From: Lactiplantibacillus songbeiensis
GTDB taxonomy: Bacteria > Bacillota > Bacilli > Lactobacillales > Lactobacillaceae
Assembly: GCF_005405125.1 (NCBI RefSeq)
Contig: NZ_BJDL01000007.1
Coordinates: forward strand, 62,001 to 126,000
DNA: 64,000 nucleotides
Reading direction: 5' to 3'
Numbering within the stretch: position 1 is the first letter of the stretch; every line of letters starts with the position of its first letter. Shown here piece by piece: positions 1,107 to 62,580 of the stretch. Made by a program: the position numbers and the translations under genes. Under the pieces are notes generated by a model. It was not told where the DNA came from and did not search any database. It was given only the letters and a program-made list of their open reading frames with translations.

Positions 1107-1121
1107 GGAGGAGTGAAGACT

Positions 1122-4100
1122 TTGAATGCAATCGAAACTGGTCAATTGACCAATCCTCACCCGGAAAAAATGGCTGGTCGTTTTTGGCTAATGGCGGGGG
1201 CAGCTTTACTGACCTGGCAAATTAATAACCAAGTTGTACAAGCCGACACAACTATTGTACCGACAACTAACACGACTGTTAATATTGATACATCTAAATC
1301 TAGTACAGAAATGCAGACCAAGGAACAAAAAGTGACAGTGCAATCCGGCACGTCAGCTGAAAAGGTGACACCAGGTTCAGGTGATATAGATACAAGCCAT
1401 ACTGAGAAATCACAACAACCAGCACCTGAAACTGCACCTGACGCGAATAGTGTAGTTGAAAGTGGTGGTCCGGAATCGCAACAATCAGCATCGGAAACAC
1501 CGGTGTATCAGCCTAGTTCTGGAGAACCAGTTGCACCGACTGAAACAATACCAGCACAGTCGACAGTGCCACCAAAGAAAGTTAAGGCGGCAGCACCAGC
1601 ACCGACTCAAGCTGCAAGTGGTGCTGGTCGTAGTGCTAGAGTTGCCAGACCGATGCTTAAAACTGTTGCACCAGTTAATGAACATACTTCTGGGATGTTA
1701 GGGACTAGTGCTTGGACGATTGGCCCCGGGGACTCTAATCAGCAGAAAGTGTTACATATTGGAGCAGGGACATTAGCTAATACTGACGTAAAGACCGATG
1801 CGGATGGTAAAGTCATAGATTGGGGCGCCCTTGGTTGGAATAACTATGAGATTGATGGTCAACACCCATCTTTAACTTTGAGCTTAGATGGTGATATTAC
1901 TACGGGAGCAGATGCCAGTTATTTGTTTTCAGGGTTAAATTACATGAATAGTGATCTTAAAAAAGTACACACCGAAAACACGACTAATATGGCTGGAATG
2001 TTTGCTGGTGCAACTTCAACCGAGGGACGCGACGCGAATAATGTTGATGTAATTGGGTTTGATACCAGCAAAGTGACGAATATGTCACATATGTTTGATG
2101 GTTACCGTTTTAACGGCACATTTGATCTTTCCAGTTTTGATACTAGTCAAGTACAAGATATGTCTTACATGTTTACACGTTTATCTGATACACCAAGTTT
2201 GAATTTGAAAAATTTTGATACCAGTCAAGTGACAAATATGTCACATATGTTTGCATCTGATGGTAGTCTTGGAAGTTTAGATTTGTCAGGATTCAACACG
2301 AGTAAAGTCACATCGATGGCTTCAATGTTTGATATAGAACCAGACTTGCTATCACTTAATATTTCTAATTTTGATACGAGTTCCGTTACTGATATGTCAC
2401 GGATGTTTGAGGGGACATCTTTGTCAGGGCTAGATATTTCTTCATTTAATACTAGCCAAGTGACAAATATGTCATATATGTTTGCTGATATCGGATATGA
2501 CAAATTTATTAAGCCAATCAAGGGATTGACTAATTTGGATACTAGCAAAGTCACTGATATGTCAGGGATGTTTTATAGAATAAATTTACCGGTAAGTGCG
2601 CAACTGGATTTAAGTCACTTTAATACAAGTGCAGTTACCGACATGTCATCGATGTTTAAAAATGCTAAACACTTTGTCGATGATTATATTGCTAAGTTTG
2701 ACACTAGCCATGTGACAAATATGCAATCCATGTTTGAAGGCATCAGTAGAGATGCAACGGATCCGGGTGGTGAACTGACAACATTGAAATTCGCTAACCT
2801 AGATACTAGTTCTGTGGTTAATATGTCACGGATGTTTGCTAATATTACGCAATTGACTGATTTAGACCTTTCCAAACTTTCAAATTTTGAGACGCATGAT
2901 GTGGATGATATGAGTTATATGTTTTGGGGTGATACCGCATTAACTAGTCTAAAACTTGCTAATTTTGATACTCGTAACGTGACCGACATGCAGTATATGT
3001 TTTCTGGTGACGCTACATTAGCCGATTTGAAGCTCACTAATTTTGATACTCGTAATGTGACCAATATGACGGGAATGTTTGTAAATGATGGTGCCCTTCA
3101 AAATTTGGACATCTCTTCATTTGATATGCGTGACTTAGTACTGGATTATCAACCACTTGGTACTCTTAATATAAAAAACTATTCGCTTCTTAACTTACCA
3201 GCAATGTATACGGAGGGTTTTCAATATTTGAATACTAATCCACGAGTGCTAGTTTTAGGTGCACATACGAGATTGAATTTTGATTATCCGGTAGAAAAAG
3301 CTAGTGATATTATTGAACTACCATCAGGATCAGAAGGTAGTATTAGCTTGGAGGATGTTGCTCAGGTAGTAGGCTATAGTAGTATAAACGAACTAAAGCA
3401 ACTGTTTTCAGCCAATTTACAACCTGCTGCCAATAGATCTACGGGATTATGGATTAACGTCGACACTGGTGAACGGTTAACCGCACCGGCATTGATGGAA
3501 CGTTATAGTGGCGACCAAGCGACTGCTGGTACGTGGACTTGGCAAAGCGTGGTTGGAAAAGATGTCCAGATCATTGCCAGTCCTAAGGCAAAGTGGTCAC
3601 CAGCAGATAACTACGATGGAGAATTGAGTGTTGATGAAGCGGGTAATAAATTAGCACTTGATAAGTTGACCGTCATCGTGCGCGATGCTAAAACCAACGC
3701 CATTATCCCGGTTGCTGACGTTGATCCAACCAAGGTTGGGAGTTACACCGTGACTTACAGTTATCTGGGTAAAGATAATGTTAACCAAACTTCAGGGCCA
3801 GTTAAACTAGAGATTGTTGCAACTCAAAACATGATAAATGCGCATGATTCGGTCGTTCAGTTAAATGAGCCATGGCCGGCTGATAATTTTGACACTGCCT
3901 TTAATGCTGACGGGAGTCCGGTCACGAATATCACGACTAAAGGGACGGTCAATAGCCAAGTACCCGGAGTCTATACGATTACGTATCAATTTGTCGACCA
4001 ATTTGGGGTGCCAGTCACTAAAGACGTACACGTTATCGTGAATGGACTGACACTTAAGCAAACTACTGGTAATTTTTCAACCGACGATCGCTGGGATCCA

Positions 4101-5480
4101 CTAACTAATGTTGTGACTGCCATCGATGATCATGGTCATGAAGTTGCGCCAAGTTCGTTGTCATTGCAGATGACAGATACTACGGGTCGAGCGGTGACCT
4201 CACTTAAGCGACCGGGTAGTTACCAGTTGATTTATAGCTTCAAAGATGGTCATGGCGACCATACTCAAATGGCGCTGGTGACCATCCTCACCGGTGAGAA
4301 TCATGCGGACTTACAATTAAAAGCTGACGAAGTGACATTATATGAACACGACACGTGGAATCCGATGAGTAATGTCCAAAATTTGGTTGATTCGGATAGT
4401 GAACAAATTAATGTTACTGAATGGCCACAATACTTGAAAGTTGATAGCCAAGTGAATGTAGCTCAGCCAGGCGAGTATCAAGTTACGTATCAATTTACCG
4501 ATACATTTGGTATCGTACATGAGAAGACAGCAGTTGTGACGGTCAAACCTAGTCAGGCACAGTTAACATTAACTCACGAGACCGTGCTACTTTACGTTGG
4601 TAGCAAATGGTCGCCAATTGACAACCTTGCGGCGGTTAAAGATGTTGATGGTCGTGATGTTACTGCTGACCGGGTGACCATTAGTAATCCAGTTGATTTA
4701 ACGCAGCCGGGTCATTATTTAGTTGTCTATCGGTTTACGGATAGTCAAAATAGCTTGCATACCGCGACTAGTGTGGTACAAGTGTTAGCTAACCTTGCTA
4801 AGCTGACAGTTAAGCAGCCGGTTATTCATTTGACGGTAGGGGATCAATGGGTCGCACTTAGCAATCTAGATCAGGCAACGGATGTTGATGGAACTGATGT
4901 CGTACCCGAAAAAATACAGATTAATAATCCGGTTGAGTTGACGACGCCTGGAAGCTATACAGTCACCTATCAATTTACAGATCAGCTAGGAGTGGCTCAT
5001 AAGGCTACGGTGCAAGTTATGATTGAGGCGGCATCGGTGGTCATACCTGGTGGCAATGGTAATCAGCCAACTACGGACGATAACGGGAATCATGGCACTA
5101 ATGAAGCACCGGGGACACAACCAGTTAATAAGTTACCAGCAACGAAGCCGATTGTTCAGCCACAGCGGCCAGCCCAAAAGCCGATACCTAAGCAACAATC
5201 GGTCAAACAGGATCAAAAAGTCGTTAAAACGGGATCTGAGTCGATGGCGGGTGCTATGATGTTAGCTAGTTCATCAAAATCGAATCGTTCAACTGTAGCA
5301 CAACCCCAGCTACAACTAGTCAAAATAACTCAGTCACAAGAGGATGGGTTAGCAGCAACAGCTAAATTACCACAAACTGATGATGTAGTGACGCAATCGA
5401 CCTCAATTTGGGGTTGGGTATTATTAGCTTTGGCTGGGATTATGCGGCCATGGTTGATTAGTAAGAAGAACAAGTCGTAA
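1122..5480 (+). CDS. Cell-wall-anchored BspA-like / Ig-like surface protein
   Basis: About 1452 residues. The start is set at TTG 1122, eight bases after GGAGGAG; the in-frame GTG at 1113 overlaps the RBS. Order of parts: signal peptide ending near VVQA-D; Ser/Pro/Thr-rich linker to about residue 185; a block from about 290 to 660 with about fourteen DUF285/BspA-type leucine-rich units of pattern FDTSxVTNMSxMF; six bacterial Ig-like modules (about 820-1340), most ending in a YTVTYQF-like strand; a Pro/Gln/Lys linker; then sorting signal LPQTDD, hydrophobic stretch and SKKNKS tail. The LPQT motif fits L. plantarum-group sortase substrates, with Asp where most families have Gly or Glu. By family, such proteins bind host or other surfaces; the ligand here is unknown. 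It is monocistronic, with its own terminator. Confidence 0.9.
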   Translation: MNAIETGQLTNPHPEKMAGRFWLMAGAALLTWQINNQVVQADTTIVPTTNTTVNIDTSKSSTEMQTKEQKVTVQSGTSAEKVTPGSGDIDTSHTEKSQQPAPETAPDANSVVESGGPESQQSASETPVYQPSSGEPVAPTETIPAQSTVPPKKVKAAAPAPTQAASGAGRSARVARPMLKTVAPVNEHTSGMLGTSAWTIGPGDSNQQKVLHIGAGTLANTDVKTDADGKVIDWGALGWNNYEIDGQHPSLTLSLDGDITTGADASYLFSGLNYMNSDLKKVHTENTTNMAGMFAGATSTEGRDANNVDVIGFDTSKVTNMSHMFDGYRFNGTFDLSSFDTSQVQDMSYMFTRLSDTPSLNLKNFDTSQVTNMSHMFASDGSLGSLDLSGFNTSKVTSMASMFDIEPDLLSLNISNFDTSSVTDMSRMFEGTSLSGLDISSFNTSQVTNMSYMFADIGYDKFIKPIKGLTNLDTSKVTDMSGMFYRINLPVSAQLDLSHFNTSAVTDMSSMFKNAKHFVDDYIAKFDTSHVTNMQSMFEGISRDATDPGGELTTLKFANLDTSSVVNMSRMFANITQLTDLDLSKLSNFETHDVDDMSYMFWGDTALTSLKLANFDTRNVTDMQYMFSGDATLADLKLTNFDTRNVTNMTGMFVNDGALQNLDISSFDMRDLVLDYQPLGTLNIKNYSLLNLPAMYTEGFQYLNTNPRVLVLGAHTRLNFDYPVEKASDIIELPSGSEGSISLEDVAQVVGYSSINELKQLFSANLQPAANRSTGLWINVDTGERLTAPALMERYSGDQATAGTWTWQSVVGKDVQIIASPKAKWSPADNYDGELSVDEAGNKLALDKLTVIVRDAKTNAIIPVADVDPTKVGSYTVTYSYLGKDNVNQTSGPVKLEIVATQNMINAHDSVVQLNEPWPADNFDTAFNADGSPVTNITTKGTVNSQVPGVYTITYQFVDQFGVPVTKDVHVIVNGLTLKQTTGNFSTDDRWDPLTNVVTAIDDHGHEVAPSSLSLQMTDTTGRAVTSLKRPGSYQLIYSFKDGHGDHTQMALVTILTGENHADLQLKADEVTLYEHDTWNPMSNVQNLVDSDSEQINVTEWPQYLKVDSQVNVAQPGEYQVTYQFTDTFGIVHEKTAVVTVKPSQAQLTLTHETVLLYVGSKWSPIDNLAAVKDVDGRDVTADRVTISNPVDLTQPGHYLVVYRFTDSQNSLHTATSVVQVLANLAKLTVKQPVIHLTVGDQWVALSNLDQATDVDGTDVVPEKIQINNPVELTTPGSYTVTYQFTDQLGVAHKATVQVMIEAASVVIPGGNGNQPTTDDNGNHGTNEAPGTQPVNKLPATKPIVQPQRPAQKPIPKQQSVKQDQKVVKTGSESMAGAMMLASSSKSNRSTVAQPQLQLVKITQSQEDGLAATAKLPQTDDVVTQSTSIWGWVLLALAGIMRPWLISKKNKS

Positions 5481-14853: not shown

Positions 14854-15147
14854 AATATAAATGTCTCCTTTTTTGTCGACCCACGCCATACTATTCCTAT
14901 TGATTATAACGAGTTTTTCTGCAAAAAGGTACCACCTGGTGCCAGGTTTATCTGGCATTGTTTTCGGAGTTGCGGATAAATATCAGGTCAAACTTAATAA
15001 TTGTTCGAAATCCGGCTTTAAATATTCAGTTTTGTCGGAAATAGTTGGTTAAAACCGAACTTTTGGCGTTATATTTCAAACACTTAACAATTTCATGACA
15101 GTAGGGTTCGACGAATTGAACAATCTAACTGTTGGCCTGGACCGAGG

Positions 15148-15215
15148 TTGCCACTCTGGTTGGACTAGAATCGGCCACCACGTTCCAGCCAATACGGACC
15201 CAATCAGAGTGGCAA
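15148..15215. repeat. R1: short palindromic derivative of the structured repeat family
   Basis: TTGCCACTCTGGTTGG (15148-15163) and CCAATCAGAGTGGCAA (15200-15215) form an almost perfect inverted repeat. The interior holds GGCCACCACGTTCCAGCC, identical to the end of module B of the full elements. It is thus an inverted duplication of one element end, without the hairpin modules. It lies in the 532-base gap between the amidase and MATE genes; the rest of that gap holds no gene. Confidence 0.8.
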
Positions 15216-15385
15216 TTTAATACAAACTGGGCTAAACCACTGTAACAATAATTTAATTTATAATTGCGGATTAATAACTAGTATTAACGAACTAAAGCTG
15301 GTATACTACCAAAGTTTGCTTGAGGTACGGTCCCCAAATCCGCATGATAACAGGGACTAAGTCATTTAACGAAAGGAGTGCGAAA

Positions 15386-22185: not shown

Positions 22186-22583
22186 ACGCTTGGTGCTAGT
22201 TAAACTTGCCGCCTGCCGGTTGGTTCCTAAAATGCTGGAACGCCATGGGTCATTTTGAAGCCTAAAGCCTGGTCTTCAAAACTGACCTTGGCCTAAGTCC
22301 GAGTAGACCACTCGCACTAAGGCCAACGACACGGCTGAGCATTTTAGGAACCAACCTCTCGGCTATATTTGAGGTCAACAATAGATAGTCAGTAGCTCCC
22401 GTTAATTAACGCCGGGCGGGTCAGAATTGGCTCAGTGGTGTCGTTTATCTTGGTCGGTGATTTTCCGACTTAGATAAAGCCCGGCTTGGAAGACCGAACT
22501 TTGGCTTTCAAACGTGGCCACCACGTTCCAGCCGATTCTGGCCCAACCAGAGTGGCAATTTAATCTAACTAGCGTCAAGCCGT
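22186..22583 (+). repeat. R2: full-length structured repeat element (398 bp)
   Basis: The ends ACGCTTGGTGCTAGTT and AACTAGCGTCAAGCCGT are inverted repeats. Directly outside are near-identical 10-base direct repeats, ATGGTGTGAT (22176-22185) and ATGGTGTAAT (22584-22593), resembling a target duplication. Module A has perfect 19-base arms GGTTGGTTCCTAAAATGCT (22218-22236) and its complement (22338-22356) enclosing two hairpins. Module B has arms GGGTCAGAATTGGCT (22418-22432) and AGCCGATTCTGGCCC (22530-22544), also with two hairpins. No ORF. It lies between the WYL gene and a terminator. Confidence 0.9.
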
Positions 22584-40213: not shown

Positions 40214-40494
40214 ACGCTTGGTGCTAGTTGGATTAAGTTGGCACTCTGGTTGGCCAGAATCAGCTGGAACGTGGTGGCCACGGTCTCATAAGCCGGGCTT
40301 TGACTACGCTGAGAAGGGCACTCAACTAAGTCAAACGATACCTCTGAGCCAATGCTGACCCGCCCGGCGTTAACTAATGGGTATTAAAAAATTACCGATT
40401 GATTATTTTTAGTCCAGTCACTTAGCTGTGTCGTTGGCGTTCCAATAGTTTAGAAACCAACTGGCAGGCGGCAATTGCAATTAGCACTAAGCGT
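40214..40494 (-). repeat. R3: degraded structured repeat element (281 bp), inverted orientation
   Basis: Ends ACGCTTGGTGCTAGTT and TTAGCACTAAGCGT are inverted repeats. Module B, reversed, is largely present (GGCCAGAATCAGCTGG arm, GGAACGTGGTGGCCACG, hairpin TTTGACTACGCTGAG/CTCAACTAAGTCAAA, arm GAGCCAATGCTGACCC), but its second hairpin has lost pairing. Module A is reduced to GTGTCGTTGGCGTTCCA and a short arm. The AT-rich spacer resembles that of R5. Confidence 0.82.
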
Positions 40495-46299: not shown

Positions 46300-47448
46300 T
46301 TATTCACGAAAAATGGCAATAAGTAACAACAAACCACCTAACCAACTAAATGTAGACGCAAAGCCCATCAGTTCAATCAGCCAGCCAATTGCCGGAAACA
46401 TCACGATCATGACGAGGCTAAAAATCATACTGCTGATACTCAATAACGTTGCGCGTTGTGCGCTTGGCATCAGAGTATTGTAATAAGTTGACATTAAAGG
46501 TTCTAACATCGCATTCAGCATGTTGATTAGTAGATAACCGATGACTAGCAAGGTAAGCTGGCCCCAACCCATTAATAAGAGCGTGATCAATAAACAGCCG
46601 GTTAGTCCCAATAATAAATGAGTTGGGGACCACCGGCGCTGCAGATAGGGTGTGAGTTGGACGCCCAAGACATTGAGACCAGCCACCGTGATTAAGATAC
46701 CGGCAATTAGTGTCCCGTTAAAGCCGTGGTCAGTCATCACGGCCTGAAAATAGTAATAATAAGTGGTCCCGATGGCGCTAAATACCGCATGAAAACTCAT
46801 CAAATAAGTGAGTTTGGGCAATCGCCGTAACCAAGTTAGTGCGGCCATCAAGAGTTGCCATAAGTTTAAGCGATTAGCACTAGTGTCACGATGCTGTGGT
46901 TCTGGCAGCCGCCAAATGATGACAATCGTGACAATGGCAATCACTAAGTCACCCCAATAAGTGGCGGCTAGATAACCATGAATCAGCCAACCAGCAATCA
47001 AAATGCCAAGCGCATTGGCGAGTTCAATCAGGGTATTCATATTACTAGTAACTTGCGGATAACAATCAGTCGCTTGATGATCGACAAGTGTTTCGTAGAA
47101 CCAAGCTTCTAGCGTGCCGGATTGTAAGTTATAAGCCCAGGCTTGCAGGACGAAGCCAAAGGCAAACCACCAGAAGTTTGTTGCTGTGAGCATGATGATG
47201 GCATGTAGCGCCGCGGCCACACGACTACTAATCAGGTTAGTGCGGTAGCTAAAATGGTCGGCTAAGATACCAGACGGAACTTCCGATAAGAGACTAGTGA
47301 GATGGAAAATACTTTCACATAGTCCAATTTGAACCAGTGAAAGGCCGTGTTGTTGCAGGAAAATGACCCAAAGACTATCGATGCCGAAATAAGATAGGGC
47401 GGTGTAGGCATAGCCCCGTGGTAAGGACTGAATTTTATTTTTGAGCAT
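46300..47448 (-). CDS. MFS transporter (tandem paralog 1)
   Basis: 382 residues from ATG 47448, eight bases after GGAGGG; the longer frame lies within the leader. Twelve helices. It shares AYTALSYFGIDSLWVIFLQQHGLSLVQIGLCES and WAYNLQSGTLEAWFYETLVD with the gene directly upstream, so the two come from duplication. In the first loop EVPSGILADHFSYR is a motif-A variant. Likely drug or metabolite export; substrate unknown. Preceded by a structured leader (47475-47651). Confidence 0.88.
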   Translation of the reverse strand: MLKNKIQSLPRGYAYTALSYFGIDSLWVIFLQQHGLSLVQIGLCESIFHLTSLLSEVPSGILADHFSYRTNLISSRVAAALHAIIMLTATNFWWFAFGFVLQAWAYNLQSGTLEAWFYETLVDHQATDCYPQVTSNMNTLIELANALGILIAGWLIHGYLAATYWGDLVIAIVTIVIIWRLPEPQHRDTSANRLNLWQLLMAALTWLRRLPKLTYLMSFHAVFSAIGTTYYYYFQAVMTDHGFNGTLIAGILITVAGLNVLGVQLTPYLQRRWSPTHLLLGLTGCLLITLLLMGWGQLTLLVIGYLLINMLNAMLEPLMSTYYNTLMPSAQRATLLSISSMIFSLVMIVMFPAIGWLIELMGFASTFSWLGGLLLLIAIFRE

Positions 47449-47474
47449 GGTATAAAACCCTCCGTTAAGGTTAA

Positions 47475-47651
47475 ACGGTCGCAAAAAAAGACGCCTCTAA
47501 TGAGTCGCCTAATTACGGTGCCATTATGAGTGCAGTTAATCTTCAACTTAGAAAAAAGGGCAGACTGTCCCCTTAACGGACTAAAACGGCAATAATTGCC
47601 TGTTTAAGACTCATCCAAGTTAAAAGATCAAGTTGCACAAGGGTCACCACT
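47475..47651 (-). promoter_or_regulatory. Attenuator-like leader with possible leader peptide before the MFS gene
   Basis: On the minus strand a short ORF starts at ATG 47614 (MSLKQAIIAVLVR, stop 47573), or at GTG 47638 with AGTGGTGA upstream. Its 3' part contains GGCAAT/ATTGCC. It is followed by AAGGG/CCCTT with T6 (47552-47575), then a second hairpin (GGCGACTC/GAGGCGTC) with T7 (47483-47510), and CCGTT/AACGG overlapping the downstream RBS. The arrangement resembles ribosome-mediated attenuation of resistance genes; inference. Confidence 0.45.
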
Positions 47652-47660
47652 TTCTAAGAA

Positions 47661-48839
47661 TTAATGTTTGAATTTTTTAATCAGGCCTAAGCTCAGTAAT
47701 CCCAAAATTAAAAGGCCACTGCCGATCCAAGTAAAGCTGAGCGCAAAACCGAAATGTTCAATTAACCACCCAATCAATGGGAAGGAAAGACTGGTCATAA
47801 TACTATAGAGCATACTACTGACACTCAAAAGGGTTGCTCGTTGACTGCTAGGGATTAGGGCATTGTAGTAACTGGACATAATTGGGGCAATCCCCGCCAT
47901 TAACATATTGACGAAGAAATAGCCACCTAACATCACGCTCAGCTGGTTAACACCGGTGATTAGTAATGTTAAAATCAATAATCCGGTTAAGCCACTCAAT
48001 AATTTGATTGGGGACCAGTGTTGCTGTAGTCGTGGTGTCAATTGGACACTTAAGACATTTAGCGCGGTCACAATGACCAGTACCCCTGACAATAAGCCGC
48101 CTTTAAACCCATGAGCCGTTAATACGGCTTGGAAATAGTTATAATAAGCCGCCCCAATGACCGAGAAAATCGCATTAAAAATCATAAAATAACTAAGTTT
48201 GGGTAATTGACGTAAACAAGTCGCAGTGGCGCGAAAGATTTGCCAAATTGTTAGTAATTGACCACTTCGAGCATGGCGAGCGGGTTCATGTAAGACGATC
48301 GCCGTAATTAAAGCGCCGACTGCTCCTAATAGGTAAAGTTGGTAAGTGACGAGTGTGTAATCATGAATCAGCCAACCGGCAATAATCAAGCCAATCATCC
48401 CAGCCACTTTTAGAATTGTGTTCATCGTACTGGTAACTTGTGGATATTGTTTGGTTTGGTGACTGTCTACCAGTGTCTCGTAGAGCAAGGCTTCTAGCGT
48501 GCCAGACTGCAAATTATAGGCCCAGCCAAGTAAGATGAACGCACTCGCGAACCACCAGAAACTGTGGACCGGTGCCAGCAACATAATCAACGCGTGACCA
48601 ATGGCTGCAATCCGGCCGGTAATTAGCATCGTTCGGTAGCTAAACCGGTCAGCTAGCGCCCCAGCGGGAACTTGAAATAAGAAACTTGTTAAATGATAAA
48701 TACTTTCACATAACCCGATTTGAACGAGTGATAAGCCACGTTGTTGTAAGAACATGACCCAGAGACCAGCGATACCAAAGTACGCAAATGCAGTGTATAC
48801 ATAGCCAAGGTGGAGATTGCGATGCATGGCGGTTAACAT
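47661..48839 (-). CDS. MFS transporter (tandem paralog 2)
   Basis: 392 residues from ATG 48839, nine bases after AGGGAG; the longer ORF has no RBS. Twelve helices, with LGYVYTAFAYFGIAGLWVMFLQQRGLSLVQIG and ALADRFSYRTMLITGR loop 2-3 motif. Clear paralog of the next gene. Has its own promoter at 48935-48963. Exporter of unknown substrate. Confidence 0.88.
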   Translation of the reverse strand: MLTAMHRNLHLGYVYTAFAYFGIAGLWVMFLQQRGLSLVQIGLCESIYHLTSFLFQVPAGALADRFSYRTMLITGRIAAIGHALIMLLAPVHSFWWFASAFILLGWAYNLQSGTLEALLYETLVDSHQTKQYPQVTSTMNTILKVAGMIGLIIAGWLIHDYTLVTYQLYLLGAVGALITAIVLHEPARHARSGQLLTIWQIFRATATCLRQLPKLSYFMIFNAIFSVIGAAYYNYFQAVLTAHGFKGGLLSGVLVIVTALNVLSVQLTPRLQQHWSPIKLLSGLTGLLILTLLITGVNQLSVMLGGYFFVNMLMAGIAPIMSSYYNALIPSSQRATLLSVSSMLYSIMTSLSFPLIGWLIEHFGFALSFTWIGSGLLILGLLSLGLIKKFKH

Positions 48840-48934
48840 TTTTATGAACTCCCTTTGAATTGGGATACCTATCGACGTGTTGACCCCCCACTGGCCGGCA
48901 CTAGATATCATCAATTTCTCATAATTTACTAGTA

Positions 48935-52518: not shown

Positions 52519-52531
52519 TCATTAACTGAAC

Positions 52532-52927
52532 ACACTTGGTGCTAGTTGAAATTGCCGCCTGCCGGTTGGTTCCTAAAACGCTGGAACGCCATGGGCCATT
52601 TTGAAGCCAAAGCCCGGTCTTCAAAACTGACCTTGGCCTAAGTCCGAGCAGACCACTCGCACTAAGGCCAACGACACGGCTGAGCATTTTAGGAACCAAC
52701 CTCTCGGCTAAATTCGTGGTCGAGAATAAATAATAATGAATTCACGTTAATTAATGGCGGGCGGGCCAGAATTGGCTCAGTGGTGTCGTTTATCTTGGTC
52801 GGTGATTTGCCGACTTAGATAAAGCCCGGCTTGGAAGACCGCACTTTGGCTTCCAAACGCGGCCACCACGTTCCAGCCGATTCTGGACCAACCAGAGTGA
52901 CAATTTAAACCAACTAGCACCAAGCGT
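52532..52927 (+). repeat. R4: full-length structured repeat element (396 bp)
   Basis: Ends ACACTTGGTGCTAGTTG and CAACTAGCACCAAGCGT are inverted repeats. They are flanked by identical 7-base direct repeats ACTGAAC (52525-52531 and 52928-52934). Module A: GGTTGGTTCCTAAAACGCT with AGCATTTTAGGAACCAACC. Module B: GGGCCAGAATTGGCT with AGCCGATTCTGGACC. Two hairpins lie in each module. It closely resembles R2 and, reversed, R5. No ORF. Confidence 0.92.
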
Positions 52928-52953
52928 ACTGAACGGATAGTTATGCATTTGTT

Positions 52954-53796: not shown

Positions 53797-53835
53797 GTTC
53801 TATATAACTTTCAAGGATAAGTCCAGTCTGGATGA

Positions 53836-54219
53836 AACTTGCCACTCTGGTTGGTCCAGAATCGGCTGGAACGTGGTGGCCGCGTTTTTGAGCCATAGGT
53901 CGGTCTCAAAAGCCGGGCTTTATCTAAGTCGGAAAATCACCGACTAAGATAAACGACACCACTGAGCCAATTCTGGCCCGCCCGCCGTTAACTATTGGGA
54001 ATAAAAAATTATTGATTGATTATTTTCAGTCCGGTCACTTAGCAGAGAGGTTGGTTCCTAAAACGCTCAGCCGTGTCGTTGGCCTTAGTGCGAGTGGTCT
54101 GCTCGGACTTAGGCCAAGGCCAGTTTTGAAGACCGTACTTTTGGCTTCAAAATGGCCCATGGCGTTCCAGCGTTTTAGAAACCAACCGGCAGGCAGCAAA
54201 TTTAACTAGCACCAAGCAT
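53836..54219 (-). repeat. R5: structured repeat element, inverted relative to R4
   Basis: Module B reversed comes first (arm GGTCCAGAATCGGCT 53853-53867 with AGCCAATTCTGGCCC 53965-53979), then module A reversed (GGTTGGTTCCTAAAACGCT 54049-54067 with AGCGTTTTAGAAACCAACC 54169-54187). The right end AACTAGCACCAAGC is intact; the left terminal repeat is degenerate, so that boundary is uncertain. Module A is almost identical to that of R4. The remaining 277 bases before the PBP gene hold no gene. Confidence 0.88.
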
Positions 54220-57330: not shown

Positions 57331-57380
57331 GTTATCAACGAAATATTAATAAAATAAGTTTCAAGAATGAGCTTTACTAG

Positions 57381-57490
57381 CGCAGGGCGGACTGCGCTCA
57401 GTGGTGTCGTTTGACTTAGCCGAGTGATTTTGCTCGGGTTAGTCAAAGCCCGGCTTACGAGCCAATCCAGGCCAACCGGAGCAATAAGTA
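57381..57490 (+). repeat. R7: divergent single-module copy of the structured repeat
   Basis: Retains GCTCAGTGGTGTCGTTT, then hairpin TTTGACTTAGCCGAG / CTCGGGTTAGTCAAA, then AAGCCCGGCTT and GCCAATCCAGGCC. The second hairpin and module A are missing. The stem sequence differs from R2/R4 (TTTATCTTGGTCGG type) but keeps pairing. Confidence 0.75.
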
Positions 57491-62246: not shown

Positions 62247-62580
62247 ACGTTTGGTGCTAGTTGCCGCCTGCCGGTTGGTTCCTAAAACGCTGGCCTTGGC
62301 CTAAGTCCGAGCAGATTACTCGCACTAAGGCCAACGACACGGTGAGTATTTTAGAAACCCAAACGGCTCGGCTTAATGACTGAACTGAAAATAAGCAATC
62401 GTTATTTTTTCAATGTCCGTTAGTTAACATCGGGCGGGCCAGAATTGGCTCAGTGGTGTCGTTTATCTTGGTCGGTGATTTTTCGACTTAGATAAAGCCC
62501 GGCTTGGAAGACCGCTCTCTGGCTTCCAAACGTGGCCACCACGTTCCAGCCGATTTTGGACCAACCAGAGCGGCATTCTA
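62247..62580 (+). repeat. R6: structured repeat element with shortened module A
   Basis: Left end ACGTTTGGTGCTAGTTGCC. Module A keeps arms GGTTGGTTCCTAAAACGCT / AGTATTTTAGAAACC and hairpin 1, but hairpin 2 is deleted. Module B is complete (GGGCCAGAATTGGCT with AGCCGATTTTGGACC; hairpins TTTATCTTGG.. and TTGGAAGACCG../CTTCCAA). The right terminal repeat is lost next to the prsA terminator. Confidence 0.87.

What the first reader, a model, noticed from the sequence alone, without database searches (positions are those of the whole stretch)
52532..52927. A family of non-coding two-module structured repeats, seven copies in 64 kb
R1-R7 share a plan not explained by genes: terminal inverted repeats with CTTGGTGCTAGTT, then two homologous ~140-base modules in opposite orientation, joined by an AT-rich spacer. 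Each module is an outer stem enclosing two hairpins plus fixed motifs (GCTCAG..GTGTCGTT, AAGACCG..CTTTGGC, CGTTCCAGC). Full copies (R2, R4) are just under 400 bp and contain no ORF. Density and structure suggest a non-autonomous mobile palindrome (MITE/REPIN-like), perhaps with an RNA role.
Basis: partly seen in the sequence, partly recalled or inferred. Interest (0 to 1): 0.88.

Follow-up and report, generated by a model that had tools for sequence, protein, structure and literature searches.

The report
Jumping DNA with paired hairpin modules
The repeat is a small jumping DNA element that carries two facing, elaborately folded hairpin blocks; in this genus it has the ends of a common bacterial transposon, related folded blocks occur in many other lactic acid bacteria, and the folds appear to be kept at the DNA level rather than as RNA.

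Summary
In detail: seven copies or remnants in the window, R2 (397 bp) and R4 (396 bp) with both modules and both ends. They are MITEs: the 16-bp ends fit the IS982-family consensus and equal those of an open-framed IS982 element in another species of the genus; target duplications are 7-9 bp; 2 of 37 tested copies have a clean empty site elsewhere with a 9-bp overlap. The interior is not IS-derived: two inward-facing copies of a ~155-base fold. A covariance model finds it in 19 of 21 genomes of the genus and 105 of 397 Lactobacillaceae genomes (13 of 40 genera), over 100 modules in some. No Rfam match. Across genera 40 of 41 pairs change on both sides, yet G.T is no commoner than A.C (35 vs 60; RNase P of the same family 344 vs 13). 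The fold therefore looks like Watson-Crick palindrome kept as DNA, against the suggested RNA role. IS982 transposase (PF13612) was not found in 10 of 10 module-bearing genomes of other genera, nor in 5 of 19 within the genus. So: a MITE here, built on a wider paired DNA-hairpin unit whose recogniser is unknown.

The parts
52532..52927 (.). R4, full two-module element (396 bp)
52525..52531 (.). left target-site duplication ACTGAAC (7 bp)
52928..52934 (.). right target-site duplication ACTGAAC (7 bp)
52532..52547 (+). left terminal inverted repeat, IS982 type
52912..52927 (-). right terminal inverted repeat
52552..52713 (+). module A, reads inward from left end
   Evidence: 156.5 bits
52714..52748 (.). 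AT-rich spacer between modules
52749..52903 (-). module B, reads inward from right end
   Evidence: 173.5 bits
22186..22582 (.). R2, full element (397 bp), modules 22206-22368(+) and 22404-22558(-)
40214..40494 (.). R3, 281 bp, both ends, one recognised module 40238-40375(+)
53828..54219 (.). R5, both modules 53839-53993(+) and 54037-54199(-), right end only
57375..57487 (-). R6, module fragment
   Evidence: 35 bits
62247..62581 (.). R7, left end only, modules 62261-62377(+) (shortened) and 62422-62576(-)
15137..15225 (-). R1, remnant of one module
   Evidence: 22.3 bits, E 8e-4

Best explanation
In this genus the repeat is a MITE moved by IS982-family DDE transposases: the enzyme binds the 16-bp ends and inserts the element with a 7-9 bp duplication (ends, TSDs and empty sites are shown; the enzyme acting on it is inferred). 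Its cargo is not IS-derived: two inward-facing copies of one folded unit, kept as Watson-Crick palindromes with fixed internal-loop sequences. Inferred: the fold is used as DNA, each 5' end of either strand folding into the same branched hairpin when single-stranded (replication or strand opening), and a protein or the transposition process itself recognises it, so source copies that cannot fold leave fewer descendants. After insertion copies drift and some lose their inner hairpins. Outside Lactiplantibacillus the same paired unit occurs without detected IS982, so it is probably older than its present carrier.
For: 17 of 30 fetched PF13612 loci of the genus have such an end on both sides; in L146 of G010 both ends are identical to the MITE end, and similarity stops after the end repeat. 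The end fits the published consensus AC(N)6T(N)5TT (PMC7335449, passages; test). TSD signal z 5.1, 6.5, 6.2 at 7, 8, 9 bp over 57 copies; 12 of 57 perfect at one of these lengths. Empty sites in L. dongliensis with 9-bp overlap for 2 of 37 copies tested. Cross-genus alignment: 94.3% of cells paired, 40 of 41 pairs with two-sided changes; four of five measures reached by 0 of 500 shuffles. No wobble excess: G.T 35 vs A.C 60, RNase P 344 vs 13; same inside and outside the genus. 23 of 23 close module pairs in G287, another genus, face inward.
Against: No recogniser of the fold is known. Copying between palindrome arms could keep the stems without selection. Within this genome shared changes in module A are mostly one-sided (16 two-sided Watson-Crick of 85 cells; module B 212 of 325). 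Unpaired columns are only modestly more conserved than paired ones (mean entropy 0.93 vs 1.14 bits). Five module-bearing genomes of the genus (G002, G005, G006, G007, G009) have no PF13612 match and the own genome only a decayed one below cut-off. 45 of 57 copies have no perfect 7-9 bp TSD. 13 of the 30 PF13612 loci lack a recognised end on one or both sides. One covariation measure, further pair types, was reached by 46 of 500 shuffles. The model comes from this genome and A5 was fitted to it.
Confidence: 0.7

Rival explanations
1. RNA element: the module acts as a structured RNA. Because both modules read inward, any transcript through the element begins with a sense module, whichever way it is inserted.
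For: Branched fold with conserved internal-loop bases and strong covariation; both modules read inward.
Against: G.T is not favoured over A.C (35 vs 60), unlike RNase P (344 vs 13). Of 32 own copies, simple frame calling puts 10 between divergent, 13 between tandem, 8 between convergent genes, 1 undetermined: no link to one direction of transcription. A need for both strands to fold as RNA would also suppress wobble and is not excluded.
Confidence: 0.15
2. Ordinary MITE whose stems are kept by mutation alone: template switching between arms of quasi-palindromes copies one arm to the other, giving Watson-Crick covariation without function.
For: Covariation without wobble; 18 private two-sided Watson-Crick changes in own copies (7 in A, 11 in B), which could also be rare source variants; 16 of 179 own hits span the whole model in only 74-119 bases, i.e. 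lost inner hairpins.
Against: Does not explain conserved unpaired positions across genera (11 of 38 unpaired columns at 90% or more) or the inward pairing in another genus (23 of 23).
Confidence: 0.25
3. Transcription terminator or insulator spread by transposition.
For: 3 of 5 window copies start 7-13 bp after a stop codon; by eye many of the 40 ends of 20 G287 elements follow a terminator-like hairpin.
Against: 10 of 32 own copies lie between divergent genes; the module consensus shows no T-tract.
Confidence: 0.08

Closest known systems
IS982-derived MITEs (MITECca01 of Cardinium; PMC9769881, passages)
   Same: IS982-type ends, no gene, abundant, mostly intergenic or in other mobile elements
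   Different: About 240 bp, described as likely derived from its IS and found in one strain; no paired folded modules in the passages seen
Pneumococcal BOX and RUP (PMC3049150, passages)
   Same: MITE features: TIR, TSD, strong predicted folds, over 100 copies (125 BOX, 110 RUP in one genome); IS of the host proposed as movers
   Different: Other IS; reduced in S. mitis and very rare in other streptococci; folds discussed for transcribed forms
REPIN / REP (PMC3116915, PMC3733652, PMC2817692: listing with title and abstract start only)
   Same: Palindromic units, some in inverted pairs, high copy
   Different: REP units are 20-40 bp and linked to tyrosine transposases; here ~155-base units with DDE-type ends and TSDs
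Integron attC sites (recalled, no call)
   Same: Folded single-stranded DNA with varying stems and fixed unpaired bases
   Different: No integrase or cassette context looked for or seen; paired units and TSDs
bcr1 repeats of Bacillus cereus (listing only; features recalled)
   Same: Abundant mobile folded repeat of similar length
   Different: Single unit, one species group

Membership tests
MITE | terminal inverted repeats | tested here: met
MITE | target-site duplication | tested here: met
   57 copies, z 5.1-6.5 at 7-9 bp
MITE | no transposase gene | tested here: met
   for R4; the ~1 kb forms have only stop-to-stop frames up to 137 aa, not searched against protein libraries
MITE | mobility seen as empty sites | tested here: met
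   2 of 37 copies with 9-bp overlap
IS982-mobilised element | ends fit AC(N)6T(N)5TT | tested here: met
   consensus from PMC7335449 passages, test
IS982-mobilised element | same ends on an IS982 (PF13612) element in the genus | tested here: met
   17 of 30 loci with ends on both sides; L146 identical
IS982-mobilised element | direct repeats of IS982 size | tested here: met
   7-9 bp; ISLpl4 of L. plantarum listed with 8 bp
IS982-mobilised element | interior derived from the IS | tested here: not met
   compared by eye with 8 IS ends: similarity ends with the end repeat; so it is IS982-ended, not an IS982 deletion derivative
IS982-mobilised element | PF13612 present wherever modules are | tested here: not met
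   0 of 10 module-bearing genomes of 5 other genera; 5 of 19 in the genus lack it
Rfam RNA family | match to a curated family | tested here: not met
Structured RNA | G.U tolerated over A.C | tested here: not met
REPIN/REP | RAYT (Y1) transposase partner | not tested
attC-like folded ssDNA site | recombination of the folded single strand | not testable with these tools
   needs experiment

The most novel reading that the evidence does not exclude
The paired module is a family-wide selfish DNA unit recognised as folded single-stranded DNA (in the manner of attC, REP or parvoviral terminal hairpins) by a still unknown host or element protein, and has changed its transposon carrier as it spread over at least 13 genera of Lactobacillaceae.
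Probability: 0.3. Interest if true: 0.9.

Novelty: new variant of a known kind. Interest (0 to 1): 0.7.

Why it matters
It is a very common component of many lactic acid bacterial genomes that has no Rfam family, had no listed feature under the 15 plasmid matches shown (that gene table is incomplete), and turned up in none of nine literature searches of open-access papers. If the fold is used as DNA, it offers a natural system in which to ask how DNA hairpins are recognised in a cell. It is also a caution: strong covariation alone would have passed for a structured RNA, while counting G.T against A.C separates the two.

Tried and rejected
Autonomous two-module element with a gene: the ~1 kb forms and a TIR with unrelated interior, L124, gave no convincing transposase. 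An origin locus in low-copy genomes: L348-L350 are one orthologous site between a nucleoside hydrolase gene and a GidB gene. Strand orientation against replication: no bias in six genomes (Fisher p 0.13-1). A 154-bp copy (L117) thought to match a full copy in L213: the alignment showed no element there, dropped. Phages and viral contigs: no match. Literature searches listed no description of this repeat; they cover open-access papers, and only top rows were listed. ISfinder was not available.

Limits: the genome search scores a limited number of candidates per genome (144, 7, 150), so copy numbers are lower bounds. The TSD test scanned 112 sources of the own genome and kept the 57 copies with both ends recognised. 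In one search, 147 of 179 own hits were used (over 140 letters, type A or B clear). RNase P used the 30 fetched of 61 matched genomes. In the wobble counts the pair of columns 43-239 was left out; it is G.T in 68 of 70. Unfiltered counts were G.T 42, A.C 85; 24 of the A.C fall in one poorly pairing position. The own copies are mostly the best BLAST matches, not a random sample, and in 4 of 32 a frame overlapped the element.

Full report
What is there. Both flanks of five of its copies align to L. dongliensis loci at 89-94% (plus one 41-base piece at 98%). R4 at 52532-52927 and R2 at 22186-22582 have the full plan: end repeat, module A reading inward on the + strand, AT-rich spacer, module B reading inward on the - strand, end repeat. 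Five more places in the window are incomplete copies or fragments. No frame of its own is evident.

Copy number. The 16-bp end ACGCTTGGTGCTAGTT has 206 matches in the genome with up to 2 mismatches, against 1 for the reversed control. BLAST with R4 scored 40 of 351 candidates, and the 40 best rows are near-full copies. The covariance model R1, built from 22 modules, reached its scoring limit of 144 in G000 and in G004.

How it moves. Of 57 copies with both ends recognised, the flanks agree well above shuffled pairs at 7, 8 and 9 bp (z 5.1, 6.5, 6.2); other lengths give z 2.2 (12 bp) or less. Twelve are perfect at 7, 8 or 9 bp, and one each at 10 and 12. Of 37 copies tested, 10 had both flanks on one held locus of another genome; 2 of these show an empty site in L. 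dongliensis where the flank matches overlap by exactly 9 bp (L003 against L179; L016 against L209, whose own duplicate has one mismatch), and the other 8 have gaps of 111-421 bp.

The transposase. PF13612 (IS982) matches 15 of 21 genomes of the genus, 11 over the cut-off. Of 30 such loci fetched, 17 have the end repeat, with up to 3 mismatches, on both sides, 4 on one side, 9 on neither, mostly weak matches. In G010 the IS is 958 bp with a 290-residue frame and ACGCTTGGTGCTAGTT at both ends; G004 has ACGCGTTGTGCTAGTT at both, G017 at one, G011 ACCCGTTGTGCTAGTT. The larger ~1 kb forms of the repeat read in G011, G013 and G017 show ends close to ACGCGTTGTGCTAGTT, by eye and not in every copy. 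The published consensus AC(N)6T(N)5TT (PMC7335449, passages) fits the four end variants tested. G000 has one PF13612 match, 26.1 bits, below cut-off, with 6 stops, inside an 867-bp relic with such ends. Five module-bearing genomes of the genus have no match at all (G002, G005, G006, G007, G009). IS and MITE agree in the end repeat and not beyond it, so the cargo is not a remnant of these IS.

The module. Each is an outer stem, an asymmetric internal loop (GCTGGAACG facing CTGAGC), a second stem, and two hairpins. On 70 distinct sequences (71 rows: 33 of the genus, 38 outside) 94.3% of cells pair, 40 of 41 pairs have changes on both sides, and the covariation score is 0.718 against 0.165 in shuffles and 0.07-0.12 when partners are slid; one of five measures, further pair types, was reached by 46 of 500 shuffles. 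The alignment was fitted to the structure. Eleven of 38 well-filled unpaired columns are at least 90% one base; mean entropy is 0.93 bits unpaired and 1.14 paired. Rfam has no match other than three tRNAs in the window, none at E 1 for R4, none at E 0.1 for eight loci of other genomes.

DNA or RNA. In RNA helices G.U is tolerated and A.C is not. RNase P from 30 Lactobacillaceae genomes shows 344 G.T and 13 A.C cells; the module shows 35 and 60, or 28 and 56 when aligned without the model. The count is alike outside the genus (24 and 48) and inside it (18 and 37). In own copies, private single changes are 29 G.T, 20 A.C and 24 other, as expected if inserted copies drift. Shared changes of module B are two-sided Watson-Crick in 212 of 325 cells (42 A.C and 9 G.T single changes); those of module A are mostly one-sided (16 two-sided Watson-Crick of 85; 38 A.C, 28 G.T). 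I read the whole as a fold kept as DNA palindromes at the level of source copies, module B more strictly than A in this genome. Two alternatives fit the wobble count: arm-to-arm template switching, or a need for both RNA strands to fold. Sixteen of 179 own hits span the whole model in only 74-119 bases, i.e. kept outer stem and lost inner hairpins.

Spread. The model finds modules in 19 of 21 genomes of the genus at E 0.01 (none in G018 and G019) and in 105 of 397 genomes of the family at E 1e-6, in 13 of 40 genera. G287, of another genus, has 122 matches; among the 102 of them that I could list, all 23 neighbouring pairs within 800 bp face inward. Its flanks, read by eye at 24 module ends and then 40 element ends, show no uniform IS982-type end, and PF13612 matches none of 10 module-bearing genomes in 5 other genera. 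The L. plantarum-type element has matches on 26 plasmid records, 19 of Lactiplantibacillus and 7 of Ligilactobacillus, none over 80% of the query and the best over 61% (two regions read); the window type and the G287 type gave no plasmid match.

Position. Of 32 own copies, simple frame calling gives 10 between divergent, 13 tandem, 8 convergent genes and 1 undetermined, so a terminator role is not the common thread. In six chromosomes whose main contig is 2.6-3.6 Mb the fifth nearest the terminus holds 16 of 276 elements (10/80, 2/24, 1/19, 0/79, 2/42, 1/32); taken singly, only G011 and G287 depart from uniform at p 0.05. Positions were part lists for G287 (102 of 122), G361 (48 of 75) and G001 (32), and the length of G361 was rounded.

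Verdict. A real, very abundant MITE of IS982 type in this genus, built on a paired folded unit that is wider, and probably older, than its present carrier. Past mobility is firm; the link to IS982 in this genus is strong; the DNA-level reading rests mainly on the wobble test. What recognises the fold is open.

Noticed in passing
chromosomes of G001, G011, G013, G016, G287, G361: Elements are scarce in the fifth of the chromosome nearest the terminus (16 of 276): 0 of 79 in G287, but 10 of 80 in G013; only G287 and G011 are significant alone.
   Followed up: partly
L373-L392 (G287): Many element ends in this other genus lie directly after what look like intrinsic terminators (by eye).
   Followed up: partly
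window 2047-3081: Twelve 51-nt repeats, 6 of 11 spacings 78 nt, inside the 1455-aa frame 1113-5480.
   Followed up: no
window 46300-48914: Two neighbouring frames on the - strand share stretches of 74-77% identical DNA, probably a tandem duplication.
   Followed up: no
L117, L119, L120, L125: Very short copies (139-175 bp) with both ends and little of the modules.
   Followed up: no
L393 (NC_006530.1), L394 (NZ_AP028149.1): Partial matches to the L. plantarum-type element on mobilisable plasmids of Ligilactobacillus salivarius and L. plantarum, a possible route between genera.
   Followed up: partly
L338, L340, L342: About 98.5% identical DNA (0.8-2.3 kb) with a module in genomes G139, G237 and G359 (two genera), next to an E1-E2 ATPase gene in L338: probably recent transfer.
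   Followed up: no
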